DNA of 64,000 nucleotides from Buxus sempervirens (Eukaryota; Streptophyta; Magnoliopsida; Buxales; Buxaceae). The notes under the pieces are model-generated. The model ran no database searches. It was not told the DNA's origin and saw only the letters and a program-made list of their open reading frames with translations. Numbering within the stretch: position 1 is the stretch's first letter; every line of letters begins with the position of its first letter. Below, in pieces: positions 709 through 45,040 of this stretch. The position numbers and the translations under genes were made by a program. Location: assembly GCA_947561395.2 (NCBI GenBank), contig OX387184.1:2046001-2110000 (forward strand), written 5' to 3'.

Positions 709-757
709 ATCGTAAACAGTTGATCGTTACCAAAAAAAAAAATCGTAAACAGTTGAT
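709..757 (+). mobile_element. Tail-only LINE insertion with 16-bp target duplication
   Basis: The 16-mer atcgtaaacagttgat occurs at 709-724 and again at 742-757. Between the copies lie 17 bp, cgttacc plus ten A (725-741). The insert matches the terminal TTACC-poly(A) of the L1-type LINEs elsewhere in the window, so it looks like a retrotransposition event in which only the extreme 3' end was copied. Confidence 0.7.
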
Positions 758-977
758 ACATTCTACTTAAAAATATATTTGACATATATTGTAATAGGTT
801 GAGCAATAATCAGGTCGGTTCAAATTGAATCTGTTTATTATTAGGTTGGAAAAACTCAAAACCAAACCCCACTTACCAATAATTGAGTTCAACCCACTAA
901 CTCGATTAAAATTTTTTAATTATAAAAAAATATATACCAATAGAAAATAATGTGAATTAGTGATATAATTTAGGTTT

Positions 978-1276
978 AAACAGATCATTATTGTGTTAAA
1001 CGAGTCATTATCGAGTTAAGCGGGTAATTATCAGGTTAAACTAGTCATTATCACGTTAAATGGCTCATTATCGTAACAGGCCTTTATAAACTTTTTTTTT
1101 TGGGTAACAACTAAGGATGGAATTTTATTACCTACACAACAAACAAAAACCCCTCATGTCATCCGACAGCAAGATGGAAAGACATTGTTATGTTAAACAG
1201 GTCATTATCAGGTTGAATGGATCATTGTCAGGTTAAGCGGGTCATTATTGGGTAAAACGGATCATTATCGTGTTAA
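978..1276. repeat. 20-bp minisatellite, about nine units, interrupted by a LINE 3' end
   Basis: Five degenerate 20-bp units run from 978 to about 1077 and four more from 1195 to about 1274, with consensus near aaacgggtcattatcaggtt. About 115 bp between the blocks contain T10 followed by gggtaac (from 1092), the reverse complement of GTTACCC-A10, i.e. a minus-strand LINE 3' end. The array is flanked by GGGT(C/T)-rich sequence (820-900, 1290-1400) resembling non-autonomous hAT-like elements; a second such sequence lies at 60650-60790. Confidence 0.65.
1092..1190 (-). mobile_element. LINE 3' end (minus strand) inside the minisatellite
   Basis: On the minus strand the segment ends in GTTACCC followed by ten A, matching the LINE tails at 5861-5880 and 17458-17478. 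The target duplication cannot be delimited because the target itself is repetitive. Confidence 0.5.
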
Positions 1277-1680
1277 TCAGAACTAGATTCGAGTTGATCC
1301 GAATACGACTGAGTTCCTAAATCCCCAACTCAAAGTCGACCCAACTATTACACGGGTCAACCCGAACCCGTTTATTCGGGTTGGATTGGACATGATGGGT
1401 CAATTTTTTCCTAATTTAGTTTTGTGTCGAGGGTTTTAGAAGCAAGAAAATAAATTTATGGTTAAAGCGAGAAGCAACATTTGCTATGCTTCTTTTGAAA
1501 AGCAATGAAATTACTTTTTTGTTTCTTATAAATCACTTCATGTGTGCATAACCAAATAGCACTTTTGCTTTCGAAAACAATTTTTTGTTTTCAAAAGCAA
1601 AAAAAACACTTCTGAAAAACATTACCAAACGGTACTTTAGTCTCCACACACTTGTAGTTTGCACGGTTCATCCCCGGCAC

Positions 1681-2058
1681 CAAGGGATCACGGGTAACCC
1701 GCCTCACCTCTAATAGTTAGGGTTTGGTATACCTAAAATCGGGTTAGGATTCAAGTTCGGGTTTATGTCAACCCACCTCAAACCTAACCTTTGCATATTA
1801 AATAATTACTTTTATATGTTTTAAATATTATTTTCATATATATCATATATATAAAAAATGTTTAATTAATAAATATGTTATTAATTTATATATTTAATTT
1901 ATACAAACACTCTTTTGCATTTTATACTCTATTAATTGGTCAGACCCGCCCTGCCTCATGATAGGGCAGCTTATTATTTGGTATTTGATGAACTCTATAG
2001 GGGTGAGTTCGGGTTTACCAAAACCTATTCTAAACCTGTCCTATTGCCATCCCTAGAA
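1681..2058. mobile_element. hAT-like non-autonomous element, approximate borders
   Basis: The right end attgccatccctag (2045-2058) is the reverse complement of the left end ctagggatggcaat of the related element at 8350. Both share a core with GGGTT(C/T)GGG and AACCCGCC motifs around an AT-rich centre. The left end here (aagggatcac...) is degenerate and I find no matching 8-bp target duplication, so the borders are estimates. Confidence 0.42.
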
Positions 2059-2299
2059 GCAGCACTCTATGTATTTTAGTGAGATGCTCTCACTTTCGCA
2101 TTTCACAAATCACGACAAGAGTTTTTTTGTGACAAAAATCTTTTGTTATGTTTATGGTCCTGGCCGTGAGATGCTATCATGTGTTTTTCATGTTTCAATT
2201 GCCCTAGTAGGCACTAATTCAAGTAAATGTAACAAAAGATTTTCATTAAGAAAATTTTTTTTTTTTATGTTTTTCAACCTATGCTTCATATGACAACAT

Positions 2300-4059
2300 G
2301 TCACTTAATATCAAACCTTTAAAAATACCGTTCGATTGCTAAGTGATCTCATCAATGTAATTACACGATATTTTCGGGACCCAAAAAAGAGCACTTAGTA
2401 AGAAATCAAAAGTTTTGAGACAATCAAACTTAAGAAAATCTAAAGCCAACAGAACAGCAGATGATCTTGCAAGTTCTTGATTTCTGTTCATGTTTCCGGG
2501 TACAGCGCCTGCCCAATTTTTTGCCATTTATTTTGGAAGAAGACTTTCTTAGTTGTATTTATTCCTTAAACTCTTAAAAGTCATCAATATTTTTACTTTA
2601 AAAAAAAAACCAACACAAAACATTAATAGGACTACTAAAAACTGGACCGGCAGATTTTGACATCCTCTGGCGAAACCCTGAACCTTCGTAGTGCTTAATT
2701 ACAAAAGACGTAACTGTTACTACGTATGACCACAGTCTTATCGGCAAATCAACGTCACATGTCAACCAGCTGGCAAGATATTTCCGTTGGCCACTCGCGG
2801 GACCCACCGTCGTCAATGGTTATCTTGAAGACTCGAATCCGATACTGCATCGTAAGACTCGTAGCTCCTAAGCAAGCAGCCGTGGAAGGGCAGCTTCGGA
2901 ATTTTCCATCAACTGATCAAGGGATGGCGTCATTTCGTTTCGAAGTGTCTTCTCATTTTAGGTTCAGTCAGTGACAGGCTTCCACGTGTCCTTTCCATCC
3001 TGAAGCAACGGCTATACGTTTCTAGAGACTTCTATGAAGCCGTTGGGATATTATGCAGGGAGTGGCTCGCAACGGTCATATTTTGTCGCAGCATCGAGTG
3101 GTTCTGGATCAAGATCTCCTGGCTCATGTTAAATGCCTGAGACGTGATGCGTACGGGCATTTCCCCCTGGCTCACGTTAAGTGCCAGAACCACTCTACAC
3201 TCTGAAGCATCGAGTGGCTGTGGATCAAGATCCCCTGGCTCACGTTAAATGCCTGAGACGTGATGCGTACGAGCATTTCCAAGATCCGGACCATATTATT
3301 TACAACAAAAAGCAGATCCGTTCTCTTAAGCCGCGATTGACAAGACGCGAGTAATAGTATGACGAACAATCCCGCTTTACTTCTTTCGATTGTCTTGCTG
3401 AGATGAGAAATTATATGGTCTTGATGGTCCCACGTCTTAAAGAAAACGCCAAAACGTGATGGAGGGAATTTGATCTGACGGTTATGATTACACGAGCTAT
3501 CTATCGTTGGCTATTTGGAAAATTGTTTTACGTACGGTGCGAGGTATTTGATATATACCCTGAAGCCATACAAAAAAGAAGAAATGTTGCTTTCGCAGAT
3601 GTGGACCCACCATAAGGCCTACATATGGCTTAAGATTAATATAGCAAAGACCTAGTTTTTAGCCTTAAACTTCTTCGGGTTACGAGATTATCACATTCTT
3701 TTACGATGCATTGTTAAAGTGGATTTTACACGAATTTTTTATTAGACCTGTGTGTCACACCTACTCTTTAAGATTATTCCTCGTATTCTGTACTCTAGCA
3801 AGAACAAAAATTTAATTTCAAAATTTCTCTAAAAAAACTGTCTTGCGGACGCAAAGTCACAATTTTCAATTACATGATACGTGCTTGCATCCTGTGGAAG
3901 TTTTACTTAAGAGTTGTAAATAAAACCACCACAGGATGTGAGGTCAGCCCCATTATAACCTATTTGGTGAAAGAAATCAGATATTTATCCGTTGGAAAAT
4001 ATCCTCTTATGATGTTGATCATTCAAAGGATATGCGCGTAATCTTCTTTTCCAAATTCA
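2300..4059. other. Non-genic stretch with a 116-bp-period duplication
   Basis: No coding exon is recognisable. The only internal structure is a tandem duplication: about 74 bp from 3091 (gcatcgagtgg...) recur from 3207 with a few differences, giving a 116-bp period. Both copies carry cctgagacgtgatgcgtac. A CACGTG core lies at 2983-2988. The segment has more GC and palindromic short motifs than its surroundings and looks promoter-like, but no gene next to it can be tied to it. Confidence 0.5.
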
Positions 4060-4258
4060 TTTAATAAGGGATTTACATCTTCTGTTGGGTGCCCAGCAGT
4101 GCTGGGCATCCAGCATCCAATGGGATCCGGGCACGTCAACATCAGCCTGACACAAGCCACATTATTTTGAATGTGGTGCTGACGTGCCCGGATCCCATTG
4201 GATGCTGGATGCCCAGCACTACTGCGCACCTAGCAGAGGATGTGAATCCTTTAATAAG
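4060..4258. mobile_element. Mutator-like MITE, 181 bp, 9-bp target duplication
   Basis: The element occupies 4069-4249 and is almost entirely a hairpin: gcccagca(g)tgctgggcatccagcatcc near the left end is answered by its reverse complement on the right. Terminal sequences GGATTTACATC and GATGTGAATCC are inverted repeats. It is flanked by perfect copies of tttaataag (4060-4068, 4250-4258). A 9-bp duplication is the hallmark of the Mutator superfamily. It has no coding capacity. Confidence 0.85.
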
Positions 4259-4356
4259 ATTACAACATCAATCAGTAAGCATCAATATTTTTCCTTTGAT
4301 AAATATAAGGCGAAATTCAAGATATTGATGTTTACTGATTGATTGATGTTGTATTA

Positions 4357-4405
4357 CATTTTTAGGGCATCATTTTTTTTTGGTAGTCCATTTCTAGGGC
4401 ATCAT
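4357..4405 (-). mobile_element. Tail-only LINE insertion (minus) with 17-bp duplication
   Basis: Copies of catttytagggcatcat at 4357-4373 and 4389-4405 differ at one base and flank 15 bp (4374-4388): eight T then ggtagtc. Read on the minus strand, the insert is gactacc-A8, the same TACC-oligo(A) end as the other tail-only insertions. Confidence 0.68.
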
Positions 4406-5840
4406 ATTAACAACATTTAATAGTCTGTTCGCGCACGTAAACAAATACCACAAGCAATCATTGTGATCTCAGAAATTGTCGTTTCATTTTTTTTTTTATT
4501 TCTGAAAACGGCCCAACAAGTTGCCAGCTATTCTCAACGGTATAACCTCACAATAGTGGTTGGTTTGTTTAGTGAAATAAACAAGAATTAACTAAAAAAA
4601 CTTTATGATTACACATGAAATTTTACTTGAAGCAGCATGGCCTAATTGTTATAATACATTTCTAATAACTCCTACAACAAATACAAATTTTATATCCCAA
4701 AAACCATTGTGATAAGCATTTAGACCTTGTTTGGCATTCATTTTGGAAATTCATTTTGTAGCTTGGAATTAGTGGCTGGACTTAGAACGAGTTCCTGTAA
4801 CAAAGCAAGTGTTTGATTACAATTTAGGAATGAGTTTTCATAAATGAATTATAAAAAATGCACAAAAAGGAGGAATCACCCCTGTACTCGTTTTTTGATT
4901 TTGAAATCTCATTTTGCAAAAGTATGGTCGTAGACTTATAATATCTAAAAATTCTGAAGGACATGCTTGAAACTTATTATAAAGACTTATTTATATGACA
5001 ATAATATACTTGTTATTTATGATTTTTTTTTTTAATTTAAGAAAATGTCAAACTTGTAATATTAATTTCCTACACAATATGAAAAGTTAGTTCCTAAATG
5101 TTCAAGCCAGCTTCTCTCTATTCATGCAGATCCACTTGAGGAACCCTGGGTTGAGAATAAAGGCCAGAAGAGGCCTTACTAAGCAACTTAATCTAGTAAG
5201 GCATATGTGAAAACTTTTTGCCATTACAGTCAACCGTAGGTGTTTTATTGCTTCAACTATAGAATAATGCAATGAATTATTTGTTAATATAAAAATTATG
5301 TGAACCCGGCCTAGACAAATTATAACAAAATTATCCAGCCAGGTCATGCTTGGGTCTTCCTTATGGTCAGCTAAGCAAGTGACCTTTTCCTATATCAATA
5401 GCCAAAACAATTATGACCTTTTTTTTTTTCCTCTCTCTGAAGGTGACTTGTTATGGGCTAAAAAGAAGGAATATTTCATCTGGCATGTCCCCTTTCTAAT
5501 GTGCTTGGGGTCTGCTTCTTGTTATTCTCATATTCATATTATGAAGAGGGAGACTTGAGATAGGAAAATGGATGGTGGGGGCCTGGATGATTGATAGCCA
5601 GAAGGGTACTGCGGTGGATAACGCAGGACTTGTCAGCCGGGCATACCAGAAGAATCTAATTTAGCTTCAAAACCCAATAAAGAAAGAAGGAAGATTAATG
5701 TAATGCTTGGTTTGCTTAATTAGGTTTATAAGTAATAGTATTTTAATTTGAATGTGGCTATGGTTGGTGAATTAGATTTATTTTTTGGTGTGATTAGCGT
5801 GACACAGCTTCCTAATATAACAGATAAATCGCTAATGGTT
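4406..5840. other. Non-genic AT-rich stretch
   Basis: No exon, RNA gene or delimited repeat is supported here. Short reading frames (for example 5102-5347) lack family resemblance. A trace of the common 'ttgtttggcattcatttt' type repeat end lies at about 4730. Confidence 0.4.
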
Positions 5841-5984
5841 TGAATAATGGCTCAAAGACTTTTTTTTGGGTAGGAAACAATTCAAACTTTTTCGGGGGCG
5901 GGGGTGTTTCCCCCCAGTAGCACGGAAAACCGTCCAAAGCGAAGTTTGCAAGGGCATCAACAGCAAATTCAAAACTTTTCATTA

Positions 5985-6030
<46 letters not shown>

Positions 6031-6634
6031 GGGTGTTCCCCCAGTAGCACAGAAAACCGTCCAAAGCGAAGTTTGCAAGGGCGTCAATAGTAAATTCAAA
6101 CTTTTCATTAATGGGGGGGTTCCCCCAGTAGCACGGAAAACCGTCCAAAGCGAAGTTTGCAAGGGCGTCAATAGCAAATTCAAACTTTTCATTAATATGG
6201 GGGGTTTCGGGTTTCCCTAGTAGCACGGAAAACCGTCCAAAGCGAAGTTTGCAAGGGCGTCAACAGCAAATTCAAACTTTTCATTAATGGGGGGGGGGGG
6301 GGGGGGGGGGGGGGTGGTTGACGGTTGACGTTTTCCCAGTAGCACGGAAAACCATTCAAAGCGAAGTTTGCAAGGGCATCAACAACCCTATTAGCCTCGC
6401 GATAAATATGAGTAACAGAGACGAATTCAAACTCAGAACATAACGACTTAGCTTCAGCTATGATGTTGGATACGACCTACGGAATATGACTGCACACCTG
6501 GTTCATGAACTGAGCAATACAAGAAGAGTCACACTCCACTTCGAGTTTTCTACCCTATAAAGCTTTAACAAGTTTCAAGCCTTTAAGCAAACCCATAGCC
6601 TCGGCAACCAATGCTGAATAATGGCTCAAAGACT
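5841..6634 (-). mobile_element. 5'-truncated LINE (RNase H end) with amplified 3' tail, 20-bp target duplication
   Basis: A perfect 20-bp direct repeat, tgaataatggctcaaagact, lies at 5841-5860 and 6615-6634. Between them a minus-strand L1-type LINE runs 5' to 3' from 6614 to 5861, ending in CTACCC-poly(A). About 6614-6340 encodes the C-terminal RNase H-like (RVT_3) domain: recognisable pieces include LEVECDSS, THIYREANR and DALANFALNGFPCYW. At least two in-frame stops mark it as dead. Toward the 3' end the segment coding DALANFALDGFPCYW is repeated about five times (see the array entry). Confidence 0.85.
5888..6395. repeat. Five-unit tandem array of the LINE 3' end, linked by poly-G tracts
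   Basis: A unit of about 75 bp (ccccagtagcacggaaaacc ... to cttttcattaat) recurs at about 5911, 6040, 6122, 6214 and 6333. Units are joined by G-runs of very different length: G42 at 5988-6029, about seven G at 6113-6119, a mixed run near 6199, and G26 at 6289-6314. The last unit merges into the unique LINE body. Neighbouring units differ by few substitutions, so amplification is recent relative to the decay of the LINE coding region. Confidence 0.85.
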
Positions 6635-6683
6635 AAGGGCAGGACTCAAGAGAGATAACGACAGTTGAATTGCTGTGTCTTAC

Positions 6684-6921
6684 CCACTCGTAGAACCACC
6701 TTATGTTCAGTGGGGGCAATTGCCCCCTCCTGAACTTTTATTTTTTAATTAAAAAAAAATTTTCTATATGTTTTAATTGAAATTTATATTTTGCCCCTTC
6801 TGAAATTTCTAGTTTACCCCTCCTAAGTCATTGAAATTTATGTATTTCATGAGAAGTATTAATTGAAATTTCTATTTTGCGTTTGCCCCCAAAGATTTGG
6901 AGTCCTGGTTCAGCCACTCGT
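6684..6921. mobile_element. Putative 222-bp TIR element with 8-bp duplication
   Basis: ccactcgt occurs at 6684-6691 and 6914-6921. The enclosed 6692-6913 begins agaaccacc and ends ggttcag (partly inverted), and is rich in gccccc and ttgaaattt motifs typical of a common plant repeat. The terminal match is imperfect, so superfamily assignment (hAT by duplication length) is tentative. Confidence 0.45.
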
Positions 6922-11042: not shown

Positions 11043-14000
11043 TCACGGGTTGTTCATTTTTATGGGTTTTAGACCCATCCCCCTCGATGTGCTAATTACG
11101 AGCTTTTTGCTCAGAGGCTTTGTCAGAGGGTCAGCCAAATTCCCAGCTGACTTCACAAAAGTCAATGCAATTACTCCATCACTGAGTAATTGTCTAATAA
11201 TATTATGCCTCAATCTTATGTGTCTCTTTTTACCATTGTATATATTATTCTGGGCTTTTGCTATTGCTGCCTGATTATCACACAGAATAGTTATAGGAGG
11301 TGCTGGTTTCGTCCATAAAGGGATATCATGCAGAAGGTTTCTCAACCACTCTGCCTCTCCACCAGCTAGCTCTAAAGCTACAAACTCTGATTCCATGGTG
11401 GATTTTGCATTACACGACTGTTTACATGATTTCCATGAAACAGCCCCACCTCCGAAAGTAAATACATATCCACTGGTTGAATTTGTATCATCATGCCCAG
11501 TCACCCAGTTTGCATCACAATAGCCCTCCAAAACAGTAGGATATCCTGAGTACTGTAAACAATAATCCATTGTACCCTTAAGGTATCTCAAAACCCTAAC
11601 TAAGGCTCTCCAATGTTCATAGTTAGGACTATTAGTATACCTACTCAGTCTCCCTACTGCATATGCAATATCAGGTCTGGTGCAGTTCATCAAATACATC
11701 AATGAACCAATCACTCTAGCATACTCAACCTGGGATACACTATCACCTGAATTCTTTCTAAGTTGTATGCTAGAATCATAAGGAGAGGATAATGGATCAG
11801 AATCCATATGTCCAAACTTCCTTAGAATCTTCTCTACATAATGTGATTGGCTTAATTTGATACTACCCGACTCTCTTAATATCTTGATGCCTAAAATAAC
11901 ATCAGCATCTCCTAAATCTTTCATCTCAAATTTAGAAGAAAGAAATTGCTTAGTAGAAACTACTACGTCTAAGCTAGTACCCATGATAAGCATGTCATCT
12001 ACATATAAGCAAATAATAACTCCTAAATTATTATTAAACTTATAATATACACACCTATCTGAATCATTTATATGAAACCCATTCATTACAAGCACTTTAT
12101 CAAACTTTTCATGCCACTGTTTAGGTGCTTGTTTCAAACCATACAAAGATTTAACTAATCTACAAACTTTATTTTCTTTTCCAGGTACATTAAAACCTTC
12201 AGGTTGTTTCATATAAATCTCTTCTTCTAAATCACCATTTAAAAATACAGTTTTAACATCCATTTGGTGAATTACAAGGTTATTTATAGATGCTAAGGCT
12301 ATCAATATCCTGATGGTAGTAATTCTAGCCACTGGTGCATAGGTATCAAAATAGTCTACCTCCTTTTGTTGACTAAAACCTTTTGCAACTAGTCTAGCTT
12401 TGTATTTATCTACAGAACCATCTGTTTTTAACTTTTTCCTAAAAATCCATTTACATCCTATGGGTTTAGTTCCAAGTGGCAAATCAACTAACTCCCAAGT
12501 ATGATTGGCTAAAATTGAATCTAGCTCACTATTAATGGCTTCTCTCCAAAACACTGCATCTGGAGAAGTCATAGCTTCTCCATAGGATGCAGGTTCACCA
12601 TCTATTAAGAATGTATAAAAGTCATCTCCTAGGTTGGTAGTCTTCCTAGGTCTTTTACTTCTTCTTAATTCAGGTTCAAGTTCTATATTATTTTCTGGTT
12701 CAATTCTAAGACTCTGTTCAGGTTCTACAACATGTTCTGGTTCAATTCTAAGACTTGGTTCAGGTTCTAATCCATTGGTTTGCCTTGAGGAAGCCACATC
12801 TGAACCTAATGTCACTTTTGACCTTAAAGGAAAAGTAGACTCAAAAAAGTCTGCATCCCTATATTCTATTATAGAGTTAGCTGACACCATATTATCATCT
12901 ACAGATTTCAAAGTAAGAAATCTATAGGCAGCGCTGTGCTCAGCATAACCTATAAAGACACAATCAATAGTCTTAGGTCCTATCCTTTTTCTCTTAATAA
13001 TTGGTAGACCCACTTTAGCTAGACAACCCCACACCTTAATGTAATTTAAGTTAGGAGTGTGTCCCTTCCAAAGTTCAAAGGGAGTCTTACCAGTTTTCTT
13101 ATGAGGAATCCTGTTTGTTATAAAACAAGCAGAAAGGATAGCTTCCCCCCACAAATTTGCGGGTGAACCAGAACTTACAATCATGGAGTTCATCATTTCT
13201 TTAAGAGTTCTATTCTTTCTCTCAGCTACTCCATTAGACTCAGGAGAGTAGGGAGCAGTGACTTCATGAATAATCCCATTCTCTTCACAATATTTGTGAA
13301 ATGGGTTTGAGCCATACTCACCTCCTCTATCTGTTCTAAGTCTTTTAATCTTCTTATTTAATTGATTTTCTATTTCAGTTTTATACTTGATAAAAGTCTC
13401 TTCTGCTTCATCCTTACTTCTTAAAAGATAAACTTTAGTAAATCTACTAAAGTCGTCTATAAAGGTAATAAAATAATTTTTACCTCCTCTAGACATAGTG
13501 TGCTTCATATCAGCTATATCACTATGAATTAGATTAAGAAGTTCGGTTTCTCTTTTTATAGATTTATGGGGTTTATTTGTGAATTTTGCTTCAGAGCATG
13601 ATTCACATTTATCAAAGTTATTGTTTGTTGTATTCTTGATTAATCCTAGACTTTGCATTCTTTTAATGTATGAAATATTAGTGTGGCCTAATCTTGCATG
13701 CCATAAAGAAATTGAGTCAATCAAGTAAGCTGAACCGGTTATTTCATTAATTTCATCTGAAACATTCAGAACAAACAATCCATTATTACAATATCCCTTG
13801 CCCAAGAATATCCCATTCCTAGAGAGTACTACCTTATTACCCTCAAATACAAGTTTGATCCCCACTTTATTCAGAAGGTATCCTGATACTAGGTTCCTTC
13901 TAATCCCAGGTACATGAAGAACCTCAGTCAATACAAGTTGCTTCCCAGAAGTAAGCTTGATTAGAACTTTCCCTTTCCCAGAAACTGGAGATGTACGAGA

Positions 14001-14891
14001 GTCTGCTAGATACACCTGCTCGCCTTCTCCCACGGGTTGGTAAGATGTGAACATATCACGATCTCCCCAAATGTGCTTCGTAGCACCAGTGTCCACCACC
14101 CATTCCTTGTTGTTGCTTGTCAAATTTATTTCCGAAATAACAGCAACAATAACATCAGTTTCAGCCAAGTTAAGTTGAGGTCTATCTTTGCCTTTCTTAT
14201 GCCGGCATTGAGCCGCATGATGGCCAGGTTTGCCACAGACAAAGCAGTTACCTCTCTTCTTAAAATCAGTTTTGTTGGTAGGTCTAAAGGATTTATGATT
14301 ATCCCATTTCTTCTTCTTAGAACCCTCAACAAAGTTGGCTTTACTAGTTGGATAGGGAACTTGAGGTTTTTGTACCTTTTCTCTAGATTGGGCTTGTTCT
14401 TCTATCCTTATATGCACTATAAGTTCATCTAGAGTCATGTCTTTTCTTTTGTGCTTAAGGTTAGTTTTATATACCTTCCAGGAAGGAGGTAACTTCTCTA
14501 TTAAAGCTCCAGCCACAAATTTCCCAGGTAATAAAATTCCTTCATTAGATAGATCCCTAACAGTTTTCTGATATTCATTAATTTGATCAGAAACAGGTTT
14601 GCCATCAATCATAATAAATTCCAGGAATTTCCCTATGGCAAATTTAACAACACCTGCATCTTCAGTTATGTATTTCTTATGTAATGCTTCCCATAAGTCT
14701 CTAGCAGTTTCATAAACACAGTAAATATCAAACAGATCATTAGTTAAAGAATTTAGGATGTAATGCCTACACATCCTCTCAGCTTTTATCCATTTAGTCA
14801 ATTCAGGTGACTCAGTTTCACCTTCAGGGATTTCTGGTTTAGATTTTGTTAACACAAAATCAATCTCTAAAGTTTCAAGCAAATAGTACAA
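11043..14891 (-). CDS. Copia gag-pol polyprotein (fossil element)
   Basis: A single reading frame of about 1,280 codons carries the parts of a Ty1/copia polyprotein in the usual order: gag (UBN2-like, about residues 1-170); a CCHC zinc knuckle ([14 protein letters not shown], about 216-229); aspartic protease with DTGA (about 267-270); GAG-pre-integrase (WHARLGHTN); integrase core with DRGGEY and [10 protein letters not shown]; reverse transcriptase with YVDD; and RNase H (YCDANW ... ESEFVAL) near the C-terminus. Integrase before reverse transcriptase is the copia order. Sense similarity extends a little upstream of 14891. It serves only the element. Confidence 0.9.
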
Positions 14892-15028: not shown

Positions 15029-16026
15029 TGTTGTTCCTTGGGTACTGTAAGATAGAAAATACAAGATTCTGCAAGACAGAAAATTGAGAAGCACGTATGG
15101 GAAGAAAGACTAGCTATATGATTATAATATCAGTGATTAATTCAATAACAGAGATTATAATATCAGTGATGAATTCAATAACAGAAATTATAATATCAGT
15201 GATGAATTCAATAACAGAAACTTATAGGTACTAACCAAACTCACAGATGGAAATAATATGCAACAGCAGAGAAATGCTATTAATAATAGAGATAAAATTG
15301 ATAGAGATAAAACAGCATAACATTCAGATGAAGATCATGGTAATAATAGCAACGTACGAAGATCAAATAGAAGTAATTGCAGAAACAGAATAGATGAACG
15401 ATCAAATAGAAACAATTGAAATCAAATTAAAAACTTATTGATTTTTGCCCGAGGCGAGGAGATAAACCCCTGTGCTTAAAGCCTTTCAGCAACCCCCTTT
15501 CGGAATGATTCCTCAGTGCGTGGGTCTGGATACTGTGGCTTCCAGCATTCAACGGACACTAAGATCCTCCAGCAAGCCGCACAGACAATGCTGGGATATC
15601 AGCGAACTCAATGGCAGCAGCACTCTTCTTAAACCAGACGAAAAAAAGAAGAAGATGAAGGTAGGGTTTTCTCCGTTCGTTTTTCCAGAGAAGAGATTCT
15701 AACTTCGTGGTTTTTAGAACCGAAACCCTAACCCTTTAAATAGACCATCCCACAAAAACGTTATTAACGTTAATAACCCAACGGATATAATCAACTCAAC
15801 GTTAATAAAATAATCCAACGATTAGATCAAAATAAAAAGATAGCACATCACACACACACCACGACACGACCGACCGGACGGACCGCGGCGGCGTGATTCA
15901 AAGAAACCCCGACAACAGGAACAATGTCTCACAATGAGGCTTCAGTAAATTTCCAATGTGGGACTATTCTCCCCACACAAGAAACAAAGGAATTTTGAGT
16001 CCTCAAAAAACGACCAAAACACAACA
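15029..16026 (-). repeat. 5' LTR of the copia element
   Basis: Long terminal repeat of 998 bp, ending CAACA in element sense next to the gag-pol region. It matches 9343-10482 almost base for base except for length differences in the AT-rich and GC-rich middle parts. Confidence 0.92.
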
Positions 16027-16908
16027 GATCATTTGTGGAGGCAGTGCCCCTTCTCTCTTGCAGCATGGCTTCAATGTTTAGGAAGCACAACTCAATCATT
16101 TGGACCTCCGAATTCAGTCCGGCAGTGGATTCATGCTCTTATCCAGTGCAAATCAGATTTGCACAGCTTTCATATTAATAAAATTCTTGCTGACATTTCA
16201 CTCTTTGGGTGGGTCTTGTGGAGTCACAGAAACAAAATTATATTTGAAAATTGCCCTCCTAATGTTTTTCAGGTTATTAAGAGATTCAAGGCATTGCAGA
16301 AAGAACTTGGGATGATAACGAATCCTCCTTCCTCTTCTTTCATAGTCACTGAACAGACTCAAGTGGTATGGAATTCTCCGCCTACATCCTACGTTAAATT
16401 TAACTTTGATGGAGCTCTTCGCCATTCTACAGGTCAAGCTGGAATTGGAGTTCTAGCTCGTGATCACAATGGTCAATTTTTGGCAGCTGTGGCAGCCATT
16501 TGTGATGTTCAGTTTGCAATCCAGGCGGAGGCTTAAGCTGCGTTAGAAGCATTAAAGCTAGCTCGTGCACTTGGTTTCTCTCAGGTGATCATTGAAGGAG
16601 ATTCTCAAGCACTGATCCATCTTCTACAAAACCCAATATCATCTCCTTCCTGGCGGTTGAAAGCAACAGTAGACCACATCAAATCCTTATGGCATCTATT
16701 CAGGCGAGACACACACTTCGGGAAGGCAATTGTGTAGCAAATAAATTGGCTAATTTCGCACTTGACCAATATCCATGTTACTGGGTCAATAAACCCCCCT
16801 CATTTTTTGTTAACTTGTATATTTGATGATGCTCGGCATGTATCTTACTTACGAAATAAATAAATATTTTGCCCTTTTCACCAAAAAAAAATGACTTTAA
16901 TAGGAATC

Positions 16909-17478
16909 TTATTAACATATTGCCTAATGTGTCTGAATTGTCTAGTGAAATGCTCAAACAAAATGTTATTAACATATTGCCTATTGGGGTTGTTGCAAGA
17001 GATGATCAAGGGCAATTTATAGCAGCTGTTGCGTCTCGGACCGTGGCTTCTTCTTCACTTCAAACTGAGGCATTGGCAGCTCTTGAAGCCCTCAGATTAG
17101 CTAAAGCTATGAACATGTTAAAGATAGTCTTGGAGGAGATTCATGATTGATGATTCGTATATTATCCAAATTACAGAATGGATGTTTGGAGTTATCAGAG
17201 GTACCTTGGAAAATCATACCAACTGTTTGTGAAAATAATCCAGTTATGGAGTTCATTTCAACAGGTGCTGTATCAATTACATATATACAGAGAGGGAAAT
17301 TCTGCAGCTGATCTCTTAGCAAATTTCAGTAGTGTTGAGTACTCTTGTTATGGCGTTATAAAATCCCACCTTTTTGTATTTTGTTTTATTCGATGAAGCT
17401 TGTGGTATTGAATACAATAGGGATGTAACTTGACTTTCTATTAAATAAAGTTCTTTTCTTACCCAAAAAAAAAAAAAA
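16909..17478 (+). mobile_element. Second L1-type LINE 3' end (RNase H) with poly(A)
   Basis: A separate RNase H C-terminal region starts near 16984 (IGVVARDDQGQFIAAVASR, then LAALEALRLAKAMNM) and closes with YIYREGNSAADLLAN in another frame, showing frame decay. It ends cttttcttaccc followed by about 14 A at 17465-17478. At its front an 18-bp direct repeat, ttattaacatattgccta, occurs at 16909-16926 and 16966-16983. No target duplication is found after the poly(A), so the 5' border is uncertain. Confidence 0.7.

Positions 17479-35538: not shown

Positions 35539-35581
<43 letters not shown>
35539..35581. repeat. (GA)n microsatellite
   Basis: About twenty-one uninterrupted AG units. Confidence 0.95.
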
Positions 35582-35584
<3 letters not shown>

Positions 35585-35655
35585 ATGAGATGTGTCTTTC
35601 AAGTCTACTGTCCAAATCAATAGAAGGAGGACGGCAGGAAAACCTGCTAAGAAAC

Positions 35656-35699
35656 AGTGTTCCACTTCCTTACCCAAAAAAAAAAAAAGTGTTCCACTT
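35656..35699 (+). mobile_element. Tail-only LINE insertion with 12-bp duplication
   Basis: agtgttccactt at 35656-35667 and 35688-35699 flanks ccttaccc followed by twelve A (35668-35687). The insert equals the last bases of the LINE ending at 17478. Confidence 0.75.
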
Positions 35700-36618: not shown

Positions 36619-36670
36619 ATCTAGAGCCACTCAGTTTTTTACCCCAAAAAAAAAATCTAGAGCCACTCAG
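36619..36670 (+). mobile_element. Tail-only LINE insertion with 16-bp duplication
   Basis: atctagagccactcag at 36619-36634 and 36655-36670 flanks ttttttacccc plus nine A (36635-36654). The same structure is inherited in the second copy of the tandem duplication (about 37437-37488). Confidence 0.72.
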
Positions 36671-37618
36671 TGGTTCTAGCATGAAACTTGCGAATTGATG
36701 GCAATTTTCAATAGTGGGGCCCACACTCCAAAATGCATCTCAGCCGGTGGTTTAGTGAAACCACCGGATTTTGGCTCTAAAAGAAGTGCTTACCAGTTAT
36801 CAACTTAGACTTTCAAGTGCAACAGTTGTTTAGCATAGTATCAAAGCAAGAAGTGATGTTGTTTAGCATAGTATCAAAGCAAGAAGTGATGTATTCAACT
36901 CCCAGGGTGATGTGTTCAACACTCGAGGTGAATTTGCAGTGGCTTTTATTTGAATCTAGGATGTAAAATACATGCAGGGGAGTGCTAAGATATTGTATTT
37001 GGACCCTTTGTTACACATAATTGCGCTTTCATCTATCATCTTAAGTTTTTAGGTGCAATGATTGCTTAATAAAAATTATTATAAGAAGGTGAGAAATTTT
37101 ATAAACTATTTTTTACGGGTAACTCTGTGTTCGAACGTGTTTGGCCATTTAGTTGAAGCAATTTCAATTTATGGTTCTTTGTGCAGAGATCCCATTAAGG
37201 GTTTGCTTAAAGAGGTTTAGAGCATTAGCTTTGTAAAATTATTTTCCTAATTACTAAGGGATTGCACGTGCTACGCGCGTAACAAATCATGTGGGACCCA
37301 CTTACCAGAAAGAGTTCAAATCGTTATGTTAATGTGGTCTTCAATCACACATGGTATGCCAAATAAAAAAATTGTTAAGATATTTTTTTGGTCTTTGATA
37401 TACATATTTACGCCATCAACTATTAGAGATCGTTTCATCTGGAGCCACTCAGTTTTTTACCCAAAAAAAAAAATCTGGAGCCACTCAGTGGTTCTAGCAT
37501 GAAACTTGTGAATGGATGGCAATTCTCAATAGTGGGACCCACACTCCAAAATGCATCTCAGCCGGTGGTTTAGTGAAACCACCGGATTTTGGCTCTAGAA
37601 GAAATGTTTACCAGGCTA

Positions 37619-38827: not shown

Positions 38828-39190
38828 AAAGGAAAAATTGGTTTTAAGTGATATTTTTCAAAATACTAAAATTCAGATTCAGTCACTCAATTCTTGGTAA
38901 TTGAAAATTAGTAATACTTTTTTAAAACAATTAAGAATCAATGTCATTTTACTATTCATGAAGAATTTCTTTCAAAAATGTCCTCAAAAAGACTTGTAAA
39001 CCTCACTTGTAACAACTAACAAGATAAGTGAAAAGGTTTTCAAAGTCTTTTGAGGCCATTTCGAAATAAAGTCTACACTAACAATAAAATGATATTGATT
39101 CTCAATTATTTTAGTAAAGTATAACTATATATTCCACAATTACCAAGAATTGTACAACTGAATCTAAATTATTTTGAACCAATTTCCTTT
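38828..39190. mobile_element. Fold-back MITE, copy 1
   Basis: Left arm (aaaggaaaaattggttttaa ... ttcttggtaattg) and right arm (caattaccaagaattgtac ... accaatttccttt) are inverted repeats of about 150 bp around a short centre. A related copy follows at 39201 and another at 60054. Confidence 0.75.
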
Positions 39191-39200
39191 AAAAAAAAAC

Positions 39201-39558
39201 AAAGAATTGATTTTTAGTGTTACTTTTTGAAAATAATCTTGATTCAAATCACGTAATTCTTATTGAGTGGGAACTAGTAAAACTTTTTAAAAACAGTTGA
39301 GAACGAGTGCCATTTTATTGTTCACATAAGACTTCTTCCAAAAATACCCTCAAAACACTTCTTAACCTCATTAAAACATGATAACAAATAAATTTTTTTA
39401 AAGAATGTTGAGGGCATTTTTGGAAAAAAAATATTGTAAAAAATAAAATGACGCTGATTCACAATTATTTCCAAAAGGTATCACTAATTTTCAATTACAA
39501 AGAATTTGGTGGCTGAATAAGGATTATTTTTAAAAAACATCATTAAAAACTAATTTTC
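39201..39558. mobile_element. Fold-back MITE, copy 2
   Basis: Same organisation as the preceding copy, with left arm from aaagaattgatttttagtg and right arm ending aaaaactaatttt; the centre contains tgagggcatttttgg-type inverted sequence. The target duplication is not clear because the two copies nearly abut. Confidence 0.7.
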
Positions 39559-40050
39559 CAAAACAAAGAATTAATGCTCACTTTAATAAAGTCTCCGGTT
39601 GCTCGATTTTAGATTTTAATAATTGATAGTTTGTGTTCACTTTTTCTTACGGGTGGCAAACTTGTAAATAAGTATATTTTCTGTTTTTTGCAACAAGCGA
39701 CCTATAAACGTGACTATCTCCATTTTATGTTGCAAACTTATAAATGACAATACCGAAATACCTTTTTATCTTTGAACAATATGAAAATACTTTGGTTATC
39801 AATGTAGGCTCCTCTTACGCTTAGTTGATTGAACTTACAAAACAATGGCCCTTTACGAGCCATAGATATATTTTTGCCAGTAAAACAATAATTACTAATG
39901 GCAACGGCTCTGCCCCTAATTGGTTGTCCGTTAATTACTACAACCATATTTACCATTGCTGAAAGTTTTAAGAAAATATTTTTTTAAAAGATAATAAGCG
40001 ACGATAAACTACCATTGCTTATAATTGCATCAAATATTTTTTTAAAAGGG

Positions 40051-40573
40051 CTTTTGGCCTACATTATAATATATTTGCATCTATATTCTTTTGTTTTTAG
40101 CATTTGTCTTTATGTCCCTCAATTTCACATAATCGTTGCAGATGTCCCCCTAACATTAAATTCCGTTAACTTTTTTATTATTTATTTTTATTAAATGACG
40201 AAAGCAACCATCTATAGAATAAATTTTTTTTCATATAATCCTCATAAATTTTCTTTTATTTTCATTTATATTCTTGTATTATAATATTTATTACATTTAT
40301 ACCTGAACTTGTTGATATTAATTTGCTCAATTGATAATTATTCATTAAAACTTAGACTAGTCATATAATAACTTGGCTATTTAATATTTTTTTAATCTTA
40401 TTGAGGGCTACTTCAGTCATTTAATAAAAATAAACAATGAAAGTTAATAGAATTTAACGTTAGGGATATAATTACAACGATTATACTAAATGGAGAGATA
40501 TAAATACAAATACTAAAAACAAGATGATATAAATACAAATATATTATAATGTACAGGTGTGAATGCAAAAGTG
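40051..40573. mobile_element. Inverted-repeat MITE, about 520 bp
   Basis: tacattataatatatttgca and the following 110 bp are answered near the right end by the inverted sequence ending aatatattataatgtac. Outer ends cttttgg/caaaagt are also inverted. Copies have diverged at several sites and no exact target duplication is visible. Non-coding. Confidence 0.65.
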
Positions 40574-41029
40574 AAAAAAAAAATTTGCATCCAATGGCAG
40601 CACAGATAGCAAGCAAAGAGAGAAAAAGAGAAAATGAGAGAAAAACATCTAGAGAGAGAAGTAAAAACACATGCATGGACTAAGATATTGGTAGAAAGAA
40701 AATTAAAGAAATTAAGTAAAAAGAAAGCGATGGAGAGGGAGTTAAAGTGATAAACAAATATGAAAAAAGAGAAAGAGTATTACTTTGGATTTTGATGCAA
40801 TAGAAAAATCGTTATTAACTTGGAGTATTAGTAGAAAGAAAAAGAAAATTGAAGAAGAAGAAAAGGAAATGAGAGTGAAAGCTGATATGCTAAAATTATA
40901 GGGCTAACGTTTACGGGCTATATAGATCAGGTCCTGTCAATATGACTGGTAAACACAAAAAATAATTCATTTGACAAAACAAACCGAACACAAACATAAC
41001 TCAATTGGAGAAAACAGGGTGATAAGGGT

Positions 41030-41839
41030 TTGATGTGCGAATAAGGCGCGAAGGTTAACAAACAGCAAGCGACGCGTCCGGCTTCTTTAAGTCTACTCCG
41101 GCTGTTACAATATTCGGAAAGTCTGAGTCGATCGGCAACTAGAATTGCGGTTGTCTTTTTTTACGAAGCTCACCAATGCAGCTAAAGAAGACAGGGATGA
41201 GGCAAACGCTGAGGACGGCATCGGTCGGCAATAGTCCGATCTTGGATGGACCGGCAGATTCTGTCGTCCGATAGTATGTTCTCTACCTCTGCACTTCATC
41301 TCTTTTGCAAGCTGTTTTCGGTTGTGGGTTTTTCTTCAAGTTGTTTATAAGTTAGGTTCTAGTTTGTTGTTCATAGTTGTTCTCAGGTTTGGCCATCTCT
41401 CGGCTCCGATCAAGGCTGATGGCCTTATTTTGTCAGTCAGTGTGATGCTTGGAGTTAGGTTCCAGCGTGCTTCTGTAACAATATGTTGGTCTTTGCGCCT
41501 TTTTTCAGTAAAGATCTGTGCTCTGATCCTTCCCTGTTTCAAACTTTGTTTGCGACTCTTTCCGCTTTGTGGATTCTTCAAATCTACCTGTTAGAGGACC
41601 ATTTCTCAGGCGTTTCTAATGGATTTCTATCAGGTCTTTCGGCCTTGGCCGTATGCCTGAATTTGTTTTTGCTTGTTGCAAAAACTAACATTAATGTTGG
41701 CGGTGGTGTCTTTGGGAATTTGGAACTGAGTATGATTTTTTTTTTCATGTGCTCAATGGTGAATGTAGTTATGAATGATGTACTGTTAATTTTTGCTAAT
41801 GAAATGACCTGACTATGGTCTTCTACCCCCAAAAAAAAA
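41030..41839 (+). mobile_element. Possible LINE 3' end with poly(A), poorly defined
   Basis: The stretch ends 'ttctaccccc' plus ten A at 41830-41839, like other LINE tails here, and is preceded by T/G-rich sequence resembling a LINE 3' UTR. The GC-richer part 41030-41310 has no recognisable protein. No flanking duplication found. Confidence 0.33.
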
Positions 41840-42000
41840 ACAGTAATGTCTTCACCTTACATTGACCGGAATTCGTCTTCATGTACCTTAATAAAATTCT
41901 ATTCTGTTCACTCGTGGGAGGCTAACTAAGCAATGAGTTTCTACTTGCCAAGGACGCCATGAATCGTTTTTCTTATGTTGAAAAATTTTCTTTCTTCCTA

Positions 42001-42638
42001 ACATTGTGTTTGAAACCTTGGATTTGGAGAGAAAAGAAAAGAAAATACTAAAATTTTCTTCTCTCTTGTTTGGTTTAGATGAAAGAAAATGAGATTTTCT
42101 CTCCAAATTCTCTTCCTCTTTTTTTCCAATGTAAAATATTCTCTCAAAAAATGTAGGAATTTTGAAAGAAAAGAAAATTCACCATCACTTATCACTATTC
42201 ACACTACTCACCCACTCCACCACTAGCACCATCTACCACCACAACAACCCACCACCCACCGTCACCACCACCAATTGCCACCACCACCCACCAGCCGCTA
42301 CCATCGCCCACCACTACTAGCTGCCACCACTACCTGGCACCATCACCACCCACCAGCCATTACCATCGCCCACCACTACCATCATCTCCCGCCACCACCA
42401 TCGACCACCACCACCCACCACCCACCACCATCCGCCACCAACACCACCCACTGCCGCCACCGCCACCACCACCACCACCCTAACCCATCATCTTCTTAAA
42501 ATATATTTTCTTTTCTTCTTATTTCTCATCTCATTCAAACATCGGAAAAAGAAAAAAAATTTAGTATTTTTCACTTCTTTTCTTTTCTTTTTTAGCTTTC
42601 TTTTCTTTTCTTCCCAAATTAAAGGCTCCAAACACAGT
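42001..42638. mobile_element. Inverted-repeat element with a CCA-rich core
   Basis: Ends acattgtgtttgaaaccttg and, inverted, actgtgtttggagcctttaa are related, followed on both sides by gaaaagaaaag runs. A possible 3-bp duplication (cta) flanks it. The core 42219-42482 is nearly pure C/A (ccaccacc with variants). Superfamily is uncertain. Confidence 0.55.
42219..42482. repeat. CCA/CAC-rich low-complexity block
   Basis: About 260 bp of imperfect CCA repeats. The Pro/His/Thr-rich reading frames across it are products of the repeat. Confidence 0.9.
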
Positions 42639-43108
42639 CTAAAAGAAGTTAGAATTTTTTTCCTCCATTACATTATAATTTAAGAAAAGTTAGAATTCTT
42701 AATTAGAAAAAAGTGAATCATTCACCATGCAGCACGGTGTGCCGGGGTTGGGATATTTATTTTTTTTTAAAAATTTCTGTCGTAATGGGATTATTTATTT
42801 CCAAAATCAATTTTTAGAATGCATTCAACAGTCACCGGTGCATGATTTTGGTTGCTAAAATATATATTGCCGACGAAACAAACGCCGGTTAAGAAAGGCT
42901 GAAAATTAATGAAAAAGAAAACAAAACAAAACCCAAATTTTTTCTGAACTCTTCAAACCGTCAACGTCTTAATCAATCACGGAGCCTCAGTAGAGGGAAG
43001 GCGGAAACATATCATTACAACACCTCTCATCCTTCGGTATTCGTCCCCCTGCTCTTCCTTTCCGTGTCAGGCCCCTCCCATCTGCGACCACCCCGCACTT
43101 CCATTTTT

Positions 43109-44191
43109 ATGTGGTCATCGTCGATTAACATGAGCAGCAACGGCAACAACGGAAGTTCAGGTTTTTCTTCATCCTCCAAGTCAGCATCATCTTATAACTC
43201 TTCATCGTCGCCCTCTCCTTTCTCACCTTCATCCCTTCACCCAACCATCCCAAGAAGAAAGACCATGGAAGAAGTTTGGAAAGACATCAGCCTCGACGAT
43301 TCTACCAGAGAACTTGAGGACCTCTCAGCTGGGAGCAACAACAGCTTAAGGAGTATGATGCTTCAGGATTTCCTCTCTCGACCCTTTAATAAAGATCCTC
43401 CATCAAGTGTCGTCCCTATCGACAGTCCCACCATCAGGGGCGGCAGCCTTTTTGGAGCTTCAACCCCGCATCCCACCATCGGTTTGAGCTTGAGCTCAGC
43501 GCAGGAATTTCATTACCTTGAGAATAACAGCGATCCTCTCAGGCCACAGCTGCAGTTACGTAATCCTACCCCTTCAGCTACTACGTCATCCCAGGCTTCC
43601 TTCGTAAACTCCTCTTTTGATGCTTTGGCTGCTCCGTCCGGATTCCCTGCTGCTGTGCCAAAGAAAAGGGCTCCTGAAATTAACAATATTTCCGGCGATC
43701 AAAGAAACAAGCGCATGATCAAGAACCGCGAGTCTGCTGCTCGTTCCCGAGCTCGAAAACAGGAATCTCTCTCTCTCTCGCGACTATTTTGCACTGCGCG
43801 CTCTGACTGAATTATGAAAAGAATTCTTCTTATGGTTTGTTGATGGGTCTATCGTTTCACAGGCTTATACAAACGAACTGGAGCTGGAAGTTGCTCATTT
43901 AATGGAAGAGAATGCCAAGCTTAGGAAACAGCAACAACAGGTAAAAATAAATAAATAAATAAATATATGAATGAATGACACATAAACGGCAAAGAAAAGC
44001 ACTCATCACCAAAACTAAATCTCGTTATAAATAGTAGTCTTCTTTGTAGTTTTGTTACACCACAAAAGAGCTGATTGTTTGATTGGTTCATGTGTTTGAT
44101 CGTTCGTGTATGACAGCAGTTATACTTAGCTACATCTGCTCAACTTCCCAAAAAAAATCCGCTCCATAGGACGTCAACGGCTCCATTTTGA
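43109..44191 (+). CDS. FD: FD-type bZIP transcription factor, three exons
   Basis: FD is a nuclear group A bZIP that partners the florigen FT through 14-3-3 proteins to activate floral identity genes. Exons: 43109-43762, 43863-43940, 44117-44191, giving 268 aa. The start MWSSSINM is typical; the upstream in-frame GTG is not used. Visible motifs: MEEVWKDI near residue 52, MLQDFLSRPF near 87, basic region NKRMIKNRESAARSRARKQ at the end of exon 1 (residues 200-218), and zipper ELELEVAHLMEENAKL in exon 2. The C-terminus RTSTAPF is the SAP motif whose Thr/Ser is phosphorylated for 14-3-3 binding. Intron 2 is GT-AG, with an alternative CAG acceptor 3 bp on. Intron 1 must begin with GA after AAACAG to preserve the zipper (see findings). 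Without splicing, the frame stops after 15 more residues and lacks the zipper. Confidence 0.9.
43763..43862 (+). other. FD intron 1 with apparent GA-AG borders
   Basis: Joining codon 218 (CAG) to GCT at 43863 keeps the bZIP domain in phase and in register. The removed 100 bp start gaatctctct and end tttcacag, so the donor dinucleotide is GA. No GT near the exon end would keep the conserved RKQ-AYTNELE junction. Confidence 0.7.
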
Positions 44192-44405
44192 GAAGGCATA
44201 TCAGTTCAGCTCTTTGCTCGGTCTCTCTCTCTACACCCTTTTTTCTTCATTTGGATTTTGGACAGGTTCACCTAAATTTTCTAAAAGAAGAGAGAGAGAG
44301 CTGAAAGTATTTTAACATTTTGGTTGTACCCTTTTTATTTTTATTTTTTCTCTGGACAGGTTCAACTAATCCTTCTTAATGAAGAGAGAAAGACTGAGAG
44401 AGTGC

Positions 44406-44444
44406 GACAGAGAGCTGGTTTACCAAAAAAAAGACAGAGAGCTG
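44406..44444 (+). mobile_element. Tail-only LINE insertion with 12-bp duplication
   Basis: gacagagagctg at 44406-44417 and 44433-44444 flanks gtttacc plus eight A (44418-44432). The surrounding GA-rich sequence makes chance repeats more likely than at the other sites. Confidence 0.6.
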
Positions 44445-44987
44445 ACTGAAGGGAAGGGGTTTTAATGTTTTCGTGGGTGGTGGGTGGTGGGTACAAAGTA
44501 CTTCAAATAATGTGAGAGAGAGATAGAGAGAGAGGGAGAGCGAAATGGTTTTATTTGAATTCCAAGCAGGCAGGAAGCGATGCCTCTATTTTGTTAATCT
44601 ATCCTTTGCTTCGTCTTTTTTTGGTCTTCATAATGCTGTCTTCTTTGTTTTTTTTCCCCTCCTGTAATTTATATGATGGTGAGAGACGTACAGGAAGGAT
44701 GAGGATCGAATCCCTGTAAACAGATCTATACTAAAGTATATTAAGAAAACACTTCAAAGGGAAGAAACCAAGAAGACCGTCACTTGGATTTTCTCGGACT
44801 TGTGAAGCTGCAACCACTATGCAGACCAACTATGGCCCAACTACACTACAGTCACGCTATGTAAACCACAAAAGTCCGTTCCAAAAGCATTTCGTGGAGG
44901 GGACTTATTTTCACGTCGATGTGTTCTTCTTCTCTCCCTTTCTTTTTTCAAGTCTAATCACTTATCTCCTCTTTACTTCCTCCCTTT

Positions 44988-45040
44988 CGGTTCCCTCCAT
45001 TATCTTTTTTTTTTTAGGTAATCCGGTTCCCTCCAGTATC
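44988..45040 (-). mobile_element. Tail-only LINE insertion (minus) with 17-bp duplication
   Basis: cggttccctccaKtatc at 44988-45004 and 45024-45040 (one mismatch) flanks eleven T then aggtaatc (45005-45023), i.e. gattacct-A11 on the minus strand. Confidence 0.72.

What the first reader, a model, noticed from the sequence alone, without database searches (positions are those of the whole stretch)
709..45040. Six tail-only LINE insertions: TACC plus oligo-A flanked by 11-17 bp direct repeats
At 709-757, 4357-4405, 35656-35699, 36619-36670, 44406-44444 and 44988-45040 a 12-17 bp sequence is duplicated around a 15-20 bp insert that is only (T/C)TACC(C) and 8-12 A, on either strand. The same terminal sequence ends the larger LINEs at 5861 (minus), 1092 (minus) and 17478 (plus). 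Target duplications around poly(A) are the signature of target-primed reverse transcription; here reverse transcription seems to have stopped after copying 5-8 bases beyond the tail. Such events are invisible to repeat maskers yet appear about once per 10 kb here and create short direct duplications of host DNA.
Basis: partly seen in the sequence, partly recalled or inferred. Interest (0 to 1): 0.8.

Follow-up and report, generated by a model that had tools for sequence, protein, structure and literature searches.

The report
Seven-base LINE scraps with poly-A tails
This plant genome carries many tiny insertions that look like a jumping gene copying only its poly-A tail plus about seven letters before stopping, each marked by a short duplication of the host DNA; the sharp length suggests that the copying fails at one particular early step.

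Summary
All six loci are confirmed; a seventh (37437-37489) is a segmental copy of the one at 36619. In the window 7 of 120 A-runs sit in such a structure, against 0 of 3867 in 60 shuffles. Genome-wide, TTACC-A10 occurs 2843 times against 296 for the reversed pattern. Of 68 consecutive sites, 42 have a nearby target-site duplication (TSD), and in 36 of them only 3-9 nt precede the tail. CTACC and some CACC tails behave alike. Over 130 pooled anchors there are 74 TSD calls: the insert before the A-run is 7 nt in 28, 8 in 13, 9 in 6, 10 or more in 14. The endings fit RNase-H-bearing plant L1s (NNYYACC-An). For the commonest 7-mer, CATTACC, base -7 is constrained and base -8 near background; other families keep more long copies. 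One of 49 flank pairs tested has an empty paralogue. Best reading: target-primed reverse transcription by plant L1s that copies the tail plus about 7 nt, then stops. Poly(A)-only insertions are known in humans; sharp length, abundance and family bias are new to me. The cause of the stop is inferred.

The parts
709..757 (+). Tail-only insertion: TSD 709-724, insert 725-741 (CGTTACC + A10), TSD 742-757
   Evidence: 16/16 TSD, 7 nt before the A-run
4357..4405 (-). Tail-only insertion, minus strand: TSDs 4357-4373 and 4389-4405, insert 4374-4388 (GACTACC + A8)
   Evidence: 17-bp TSD with 1 mismatch; the 7-mer GACTACC is also the 3' end of an L1 (L097)
35652..35699 (+). Tail-only insertion: TSDs 35652-35667 and 35684-35699, insert CCTTACCC + A8
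   Evidence: 16-bp TSD, 1 mismatch
36619..36671 (+). Tail-only insertion: 17-bp TSDs, insert TTTTTACCCC + A9
   Evidence: 17/17 TSD
37437..37489 (+).
   Evidence: 17/17 TSD; 277-bp repeat, 94% identical, spacing 818
44406..44444 (+). Tail-only insertion: 12-bp TSDs, insert GTTTACC + A8
44988..45040 (-). Tail-only insertion, minus strand: 17-bp TSDs, 1 mismatch, insert GATTACCT + A11
15958..16891 (+). Donor-type element: L1 relic with RNase-H-like domain and 3' end CTTTTCACC-A9
   Evidence: Pfam RVT_3 over part of the domain
16980..17478 (+). Second L1-like 3' part ending CTTTTCTTACCC-A14 (L1 nature judged by eye)
5860..6700 (-). L1-like 3' part ending TTTCCTACCC-A8 (L1 nature judged by eye), with tandem copies and long C/G runs
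1092..1300 (-). L1-like end GTTGTTACCC-A10; 74% identical over 90 nt to the end of L062, an RNase-H-bearing L1

Best explanation
These are insertions made by the target-primed reverse transcription machinery of plant L1 elements that carry an RNase-H-like domain. The L1 enzyme nicks the host DNA, primes on the poly(A) tail of an L1 RNA, copies the tail and the last 7 or so bases of the RNA, then stops. The short cDNA is joined to the second nick, sometimes after 1-2 bases that do not match the L1, which leaves a TSD of about 16 bp around 'NNNNACC + oligo-A'. Shown: the TSDs, the tail, the L1-like 7-mers, the sharp length, one empty site. Inferred: which enzyme did it, and why it stops. I think it most likely that the enzyme aborts at a fixed early step, still holding the tail-body junction of its RNA, or that it copies an RNA already cut back to a stub of about 7 nt plus tail; I cannot separate these two.
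For: TTACC-A10: 2843 sites against 296 for the reversed control. A nearby TSD at 42 of 68 such sites, against 1.4% for mismatched partners; 36 of the 68 have 3-9 nt before the tail. TSD calls in the pooled set: CTACC 12 of 15 anchors (9 with 2-9 nt), CACC 8 of 20 (5 with 2-9 nt), ATACC 1 of 5, GTACC 0 of 1. Insert length 7 in 28, 8 in 13 and 9 in 6 of 74 TSD calls. In 54 L1 3' ends (several from the same family) the last base is C in 53, -2 is C in 36, -3 is A in 42, -8 is T in 42. Of 22 distinct insert 7-mers, 11 occur among those ends, against a mean of 6.7 when the two outer bases are replaced by TSD-end bases (3 of 2000 trials reach 11). CATTACC ends an L1-like 3' region with AATAAA (L188). 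CATTACC-A9: 624 sites against 27; in the 100 listed, -8 is T40 A26 G21 C13, 12 of them TTT. In ATTACC-A9, -7 is C in 53 of 100 listed. In 31 TTACC inserts of 7 nt or more, -7 is never A. L086 has an empty paralogue in L020 with one TSD copy.
Against: The donor match is helped by selection, since the anchors fix 3-5 of the 7 bases: counted by copies, 18 of 48 inserts match an L1 end, against 14.4 in the control (314 of 2000 trials reach it). The target motif is weak for an L1 endonuclease: first TSD base A 69%, G 23%, second A 54%, no T-rich upstream side (the TSD start is blurred by the A-run). Families differ: base -8 stays T in 65 of 100 listed GGTTACC, 35 of 61 GTCCACC and 39 of 62 readable GTTTACC sites, so long copies are commoner there; GGTTACC, commonest in the L1 sample (7 of 54), is seen once in 48 inserts. 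A pure enzyme-distance rule would not predict that. No TSD was called at 26 of 68 TTACC sites; at least 4 of these have RNase-H coding DNA just upstream, i.e. are longer L1s. Of 74 TSD searches have inserts of 10 nt or more and 2 have none.
Confidence: 0.84

Rival explanations
1. Stub template (a sub-case of the best explanation): the L1 RNA is degraded from its 5' side while a protein holds the poly(A) junction. The enzyme then copies a stub of 7 nt plus tail to its end and adds a base or two, so the insertions are footprints of destroyed L1 RNAs.
For: The end is precise. In the four such CATTACC inserts it is A, C, G and A. L111 holds two tails of one L1 type joined inside one TSD, as if the enzyme jumped from one template end to another tail. 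The last TSD base is T in 37%, against 32% T in the window, so no clear microhomology with L1 position -8.
Against: No RNA data. 15 is a small sample. A precise enzyme stop followed by joining of a stray base looks the same.
Confidence: 0.4
2. RNA fold or U-tract block: a hairpin or the U-rich tract just upstream of the 7-mer makes the enzyme fall off.
For: L1s have T at -8, -9 and -10 in 42, 44 and 38 of 54. In 27 distinct L1 ends predicted pairing at -10 is 0.71 against 0.54 in shuffles, and pairing of -8 to -11 with the tail is 0.09-0.13 against 0.02.
Against: Those excesses are small and other positions near -8 to -12 differ by 0.02-0.09 from shuffles. Where T reaches into the last 7 bases (TTCTACC in L109, TTTTACC in L033) the insert is still 7 nt.
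Confidence: 0.15
3. Old full-size LINE or SINE copies that lost their bodies by deletion.
For: None found.
Against: Deletions would have to end about 7 nt from the tail and exactly at the TSD each time; TSDs are perfect in 43 of 59 distinct inserts; an empty paralogue shows insertion in one case.
Confidence: 0.02
4. Chance direct repeats, slippage or microsatellite growth around A-tracts.
For: In the random stretches 15 of 212 A-runs with other tails give TSD-like hits, many of them in tandem repeats (L026, L013).
Against: 0 hits among 3867 A-runs in 60 shuffles; 7 of 13 with TACC against 3 of 106 with other tails in the window.
Confidence: 0.01

Closest known systems
'Simple poly(A) insertions' by the human L1 machinery
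   Same: TSD plus poly(A) and almost nothing else; PMC3219598 (passages) cites three among 48 disease-causing events and adds one poly(T) stretch
   Different: There few cases, and the donor of the poly(T) stretch is left open; here an L1-like 7-mer, a sharp length and large numbers
5'-truncated L1 insertions
   Same: Shared 3' end with poly(A), TSDs, 5' loss; PMC2912911 (passages) reports extra 5' bases in 14.6% of human truncated L1s
   Different: Here 47 of 74 TSD calls lie at 7-9 nt; the human paper finds microhomology in nearly 80% of truncated L1s, of which I see no clear sign at -8
Plant L1 3'-end recognition (stringent and relaxed types), PMC3747384 (passages)
   Same: L1s that end in poly(A), some with a conserved 3' end
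   Different: The shared ending here is NNYYACC just before the tail, without a strong predicted stem; no statement about tail-only products in the passages seen
Tailless retropseudogenes, PMC5322556 (abstract and one section)
   Same: L1-made insertions with preferred end points
   Different: Those lack the tail; these are nearly only tail

Membership tests
L1-type target-primed insertion | Target-site duplication of about 7-20 bp | tested here: met
   59 distinct inserts of 2-10 nt, mean TSD 16.3 bp, 43 perfect (TSDs under 10 bp could not be called)
L1-type target-primed insertion | Poly(A) at the 3' end next to the TSD | tested here: met
   (by selection of the anchors)
L1-type target-primed insertion | Sequence before the tail equals the donor's 3' end | tested here: met
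   11 of 22 distinct 7-mers among 54 L1 ends, 3 of 2000 control trials reach it; by copies 18 of 48, not beyond control; CATTACC in L188
L1-type target-primed insertion | TT/AAAA-like nick site | tested here: inconclusive
   TSD starts with A or G in 92%, no T-rich upstream
L1-type target-primed insertion | Empty site with one copy of the TSD | tested here: met
   one paralogous empty site, L086 and L020, among 49 flank pairs; no related genome available
L1-type target-primed insertion | Needs L1 ORF2 enzyme | not testable with these tools
   needs a cell or in vitro assay
SINE | Pol III promoter (A and B boxes) and a body | tested here: not met
   inserts of about 7 nt plus tail leave no room for one
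Processed pseudogene | Body of a spliced cellular mRNA | tested here: not met
   no body present; whether some tails come from cellular mRNAs was not tested

The most novel reading that the evidence does not exclude
Plant L1 reverse transcription has a checkpoint (or its RNA a protein footprint) about 7 nt upstream of the poly(A) junction, at which most attempts of some families end. The genome-wide set of 7-nt insertions would then record failed L1 attempts family by family, and outnumber the long insertions of those families.
Probability: 0.4. Interest if true: 0.78.

Novelty: new variant of a known kind. Interest (0 to 1): 0.62.

Why it matters
Failed retrotransposition is normally invisible, because repeat annotation needs long bodies. 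Here the scars can be counted and sorted by a 7-mer, giving a readout of attempts against successes for L1 families, and a measurable prediction for the first steps of LINE reverse transcription. Each event also leaves about 35 bp of new DNA, half of it duplicated host sequence, so many small indels and A-tracts in a plant genome get a cause. For TTACC-A10 alone, 36 tail-only sites of 68 extrapolate to about 1500 (95% 1150-1850) in this genome, if the start of one chromosome is typical.

Tried and rejected
A stem-loop just upstream of the 7-mer: only small pairing excesses (27 L1 ends). A U-tract boundary rule: T-bearing 7-mers keep length 7. Microhomology between the TSD end and L1 base -8: T at the TSD end 37%, no clear excess. 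SINE or mRNA body: none present. Chance repeats: rejected. My first TSD caller misplaced some sites (L004, L006); one search allowed interrupted tails, and L004, L031, L043, L064 and L111 still have calls that span two units or a local repeat; they are kept in the 74. The pool of 130 anchors holds one site twice (L142 and L011), one duplicated pair (L039/L040, of which only L040 passes) and overlapping fetches (L081/L082); one search keeps one row per TSD sequence, inserts of 2-10 nt only (59). CACC and VTACC samples are the first 20 listed regions each, all from contig C1. Literature: no tail-only class of fixed length in plants appeared in the listings of searches (no hits), 58, 60 and 67; the library lacks most subscription papers.
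Full report
WHAT WAS CHECKED. The window is plant DNA (judged by its genes and repeats) from an assembly of 676.5 Mb (G000:C4:2046001-2110000). Each of the six loci reads as the finding says. A seventh, 37437-37489, has the same TSD apart from one base and lies in a 277-bp repeat of 94% identity, so it is the same event copied with its flanks. An A-run test on the whole window found TSDs at 7 of 13 runs with TACC tails, 3 of 106 with other tails and 0 of 1 with CACC; a stricter test found 7 among 120 A-runs and none among 3867 in 60 shuffled windows. In the random stretches the same test gave 3 of 6 with TACC or CACC and 15 of 212 with other tails, many of the latter in tandem repeats.

BEYOND THE WINDOW. 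TTACC followed by ten A occurs 1417 + 1426 times, against 151 + 145 for the pattern read backwards. VTACC-A10 occurs 1034 + 1079 times against 234 + 204, and VACC-A10 2539 + 2683 against 1424 + 1325. I took the first 68 listed TTACC-A10 sites on contig C1 (8 loci and 60 fetched). With a TSD score of 10 or more, reached by 1.4% of mismatched partners, 42 of 68 have a nearby duplication; in 36 of them 3-9 nt lie before the tail, and three more (L031, L043, L064) are double events. Among the first VTACC regions TSDs were called for 13 of 21 anchors (12 of 15 CTACC, 1 of 5 ATACC, 0 of 1 GTACC) and among CACC sites for 8 of 20; inserts of 2-9 nt make up 9 of the CTACC and 5 of the CACC calls. In 19 arbitrary 10-kb stretches there are 4 events in 190 kb, so the window (6 independent in 64 kb) is richer (p = 0.02).

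THE LENGTH HAS A PEAK. For 130 pooled anchors there are 74 TSD calls. The stretch between the TSD and the A-run is 7 nt in 28, 8 in 13, 9 in 6, 2-6 in 11, 10 in 1, 12-16 in 7, 32-58 in 6, and 0 in 2. I take the short side as chance overlap of TSD and insert (not simulated). Of the six calls of 32 or more, four are double events or local repeats (L004, L043, L064, L111). Inserts longer than about 480 nt could not be seen in the TTACC fetches; at least 4 of the 26 sites without a TSD have RNase-H coding DNA just upstream and are long L1s.

THE DONOR. A search with the RNase-H part of the window's L1 gave 5167 first-look candidates, of which 150 were scored. Of 60 3' ends fetched next to such matches, 54 with a clear tail were tabulated; several belong to one family, so they are not independent. 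They end in C (53 of 54), C at -2 (36), A at -3 (42), C or T at -4 (49), and T at -8, -9 and -10 (42, 44, 38). In 48 inserts of 7 nt or more the commonest 7-mers are CATTACC (10), GTTTACC (5) and TATTACC (4); 11 of 22 distinct 7-mers also occur in the L1 ends. Because the anchors fix 3-5 of the 7 bases I ran a control with the two outer bases replaced by TSD-end bases: mean 6.7, and 3 of 2000 trials reach 11; by copies, 18 of 48 against 14.4, which 314 of 2000 reach. So the match is clear by kinds, not by copies. CATTACC was not among the 54, but L188 shows it at an L1-like 3' end with AATAAA upstream; of the other five TTTTCATTACC sites fetched, L189 and L191 look tail-only themselves and L190, L192 and L193 are unclear.

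WHERE THE COPY ENDS. In ATTACC-A9 the base at -7 is C in 53 of the 100 listed sites (1128 in all). In CATTACC-A9 (624 sites against 27 for the control; the pattern excludes G at -11) the base at -8 is T 40, A 26, G 21, C 13 in the 100 listed, and 12 read TTT. Leaving out those 12, T is 28 of 88, equal to an assumed background of 32%. In 31 TTACC inserts of 7 nt or more, -7 is C 14, T 10, G 7 and never A, although A is 18 of 59 at the last TSD base. So for CATTACC the donor sequence runs to -7 and in most listed copies no further. In inserts of 8 nt or more that end in ACC, -8 is T in 6 of 15, against 42 of 54 in L1s (p = 0.009), which hints at untemplated bases. Families differ: -8 is T in 65 of 100 listed GGTTACC (105 in all), 35 of 61 GTCCACC and 39 of 62 readable GTTTACC sites, so the long form is commoner there.

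EMPTY SITE AND AGE. One, L086, matches L020:2200-2324 at 97% over 126 of 130 bases, with one copy of the TSD and no tail. Matches of L039/L040 and of 36619/37437 carry the insert in both copies; those of L004 and L081/L082 fall in local repeats and prove nothing. TSD copies differ at 2.0% of positions in 59 distinct inserts, a figure biased to young events because old ones escape the test.

MECHANISM. Shown: insertion in one case (empty site), TSDs, tail, L1-like 7-mer, peaked length. From established knowledge: target-primed reverse transcription gives TSDs and poly(A). Inferred: the L1 enzyme did it, and it stopped early. Two accounts fit: an enzyme that aborts while holding the tail junction, and an RNA already cut back to a stub. 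The stub account is helped by seemingly untemplated bases and by L111, where two tails of one L1 type (compare L166, L172, L177) are joined inside one TSD. A hairpin or tail-pairing block has only slight support from folding.

KNOWN GROUND. Poly(A)-only insertions by the L1 machinery are known in humans: three among 48 disease cases are cited in PMC3219598 (passages). Truncated human L1s carry extra 5' bases in 14.6% and show microhomology in nearly 80% (PMC2912911, passages). PMC7617806 (passages) proposes that early switching to second-strand synthesis makes truncated copies. The maize survey PMC2774510 (passages) sought LINEs with bodies of 3-10 kb, which would miss these. I found no report of a fixed 7-nt class in the listings of searches, in an open-licence library only.

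VERDICT. The finding stands and reaches well beyond the window. It is a new variant of a known kind: L1 tail-only insertions, abundant in this plant, with a sharp 7-nt peak and family bias.

Noticed in passing
L064, L031, L043, L111; pairs L051/L052, L056/L057, L081/L082: Tail-only insertions pile up: some sites hold two inserts, in L064 and L031 separated by a third TSD copy, and three pairs of the 68 TTACC sites lie within 100 bp of each other, on the same or opposite strands. Hot spots, repeat use of the regenerated nick site or local duplication are possible.
   Followed up: partly
L111 (G000:C1:914311-914961): Two L1 tails of the same type joined head to tail inside one 16-bp TSD, as if the enzyme jumped from one RNA to the tail of another.
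   Followed up: partly
L019 (reverse strand, offset 7180) and L020 (reverse strand, offset 4754): TSD-flanked A-runs preceded by 7 nt without ACC (AGAGGTT, AAAAATT); other RNAs or L1 families may stop at the same length.
   Followed up: no
window 5988-6314: Tandem copies (84-92 bp) of an L1-like 3' region between long runs of C/G (46 and 26 bases).
   Followed up: partly
window 11043-14891 (minus): A 1282-aa open frame that reads like a Copia-type polyprotein (by eye, not searched).
   Followed up: no
window 43064-43807: Open frame with a bZIP match just below Pfam's cut-off, 600 bp from the insertion at 44406.
   Followed up: no
L026, reverse-strand offsets about 4397-5244: Tandem array of roughly 80-bp units ending in A-runs, which mimics TSD-flanked tails and must be masked in any genome scan.
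   Followed up: no
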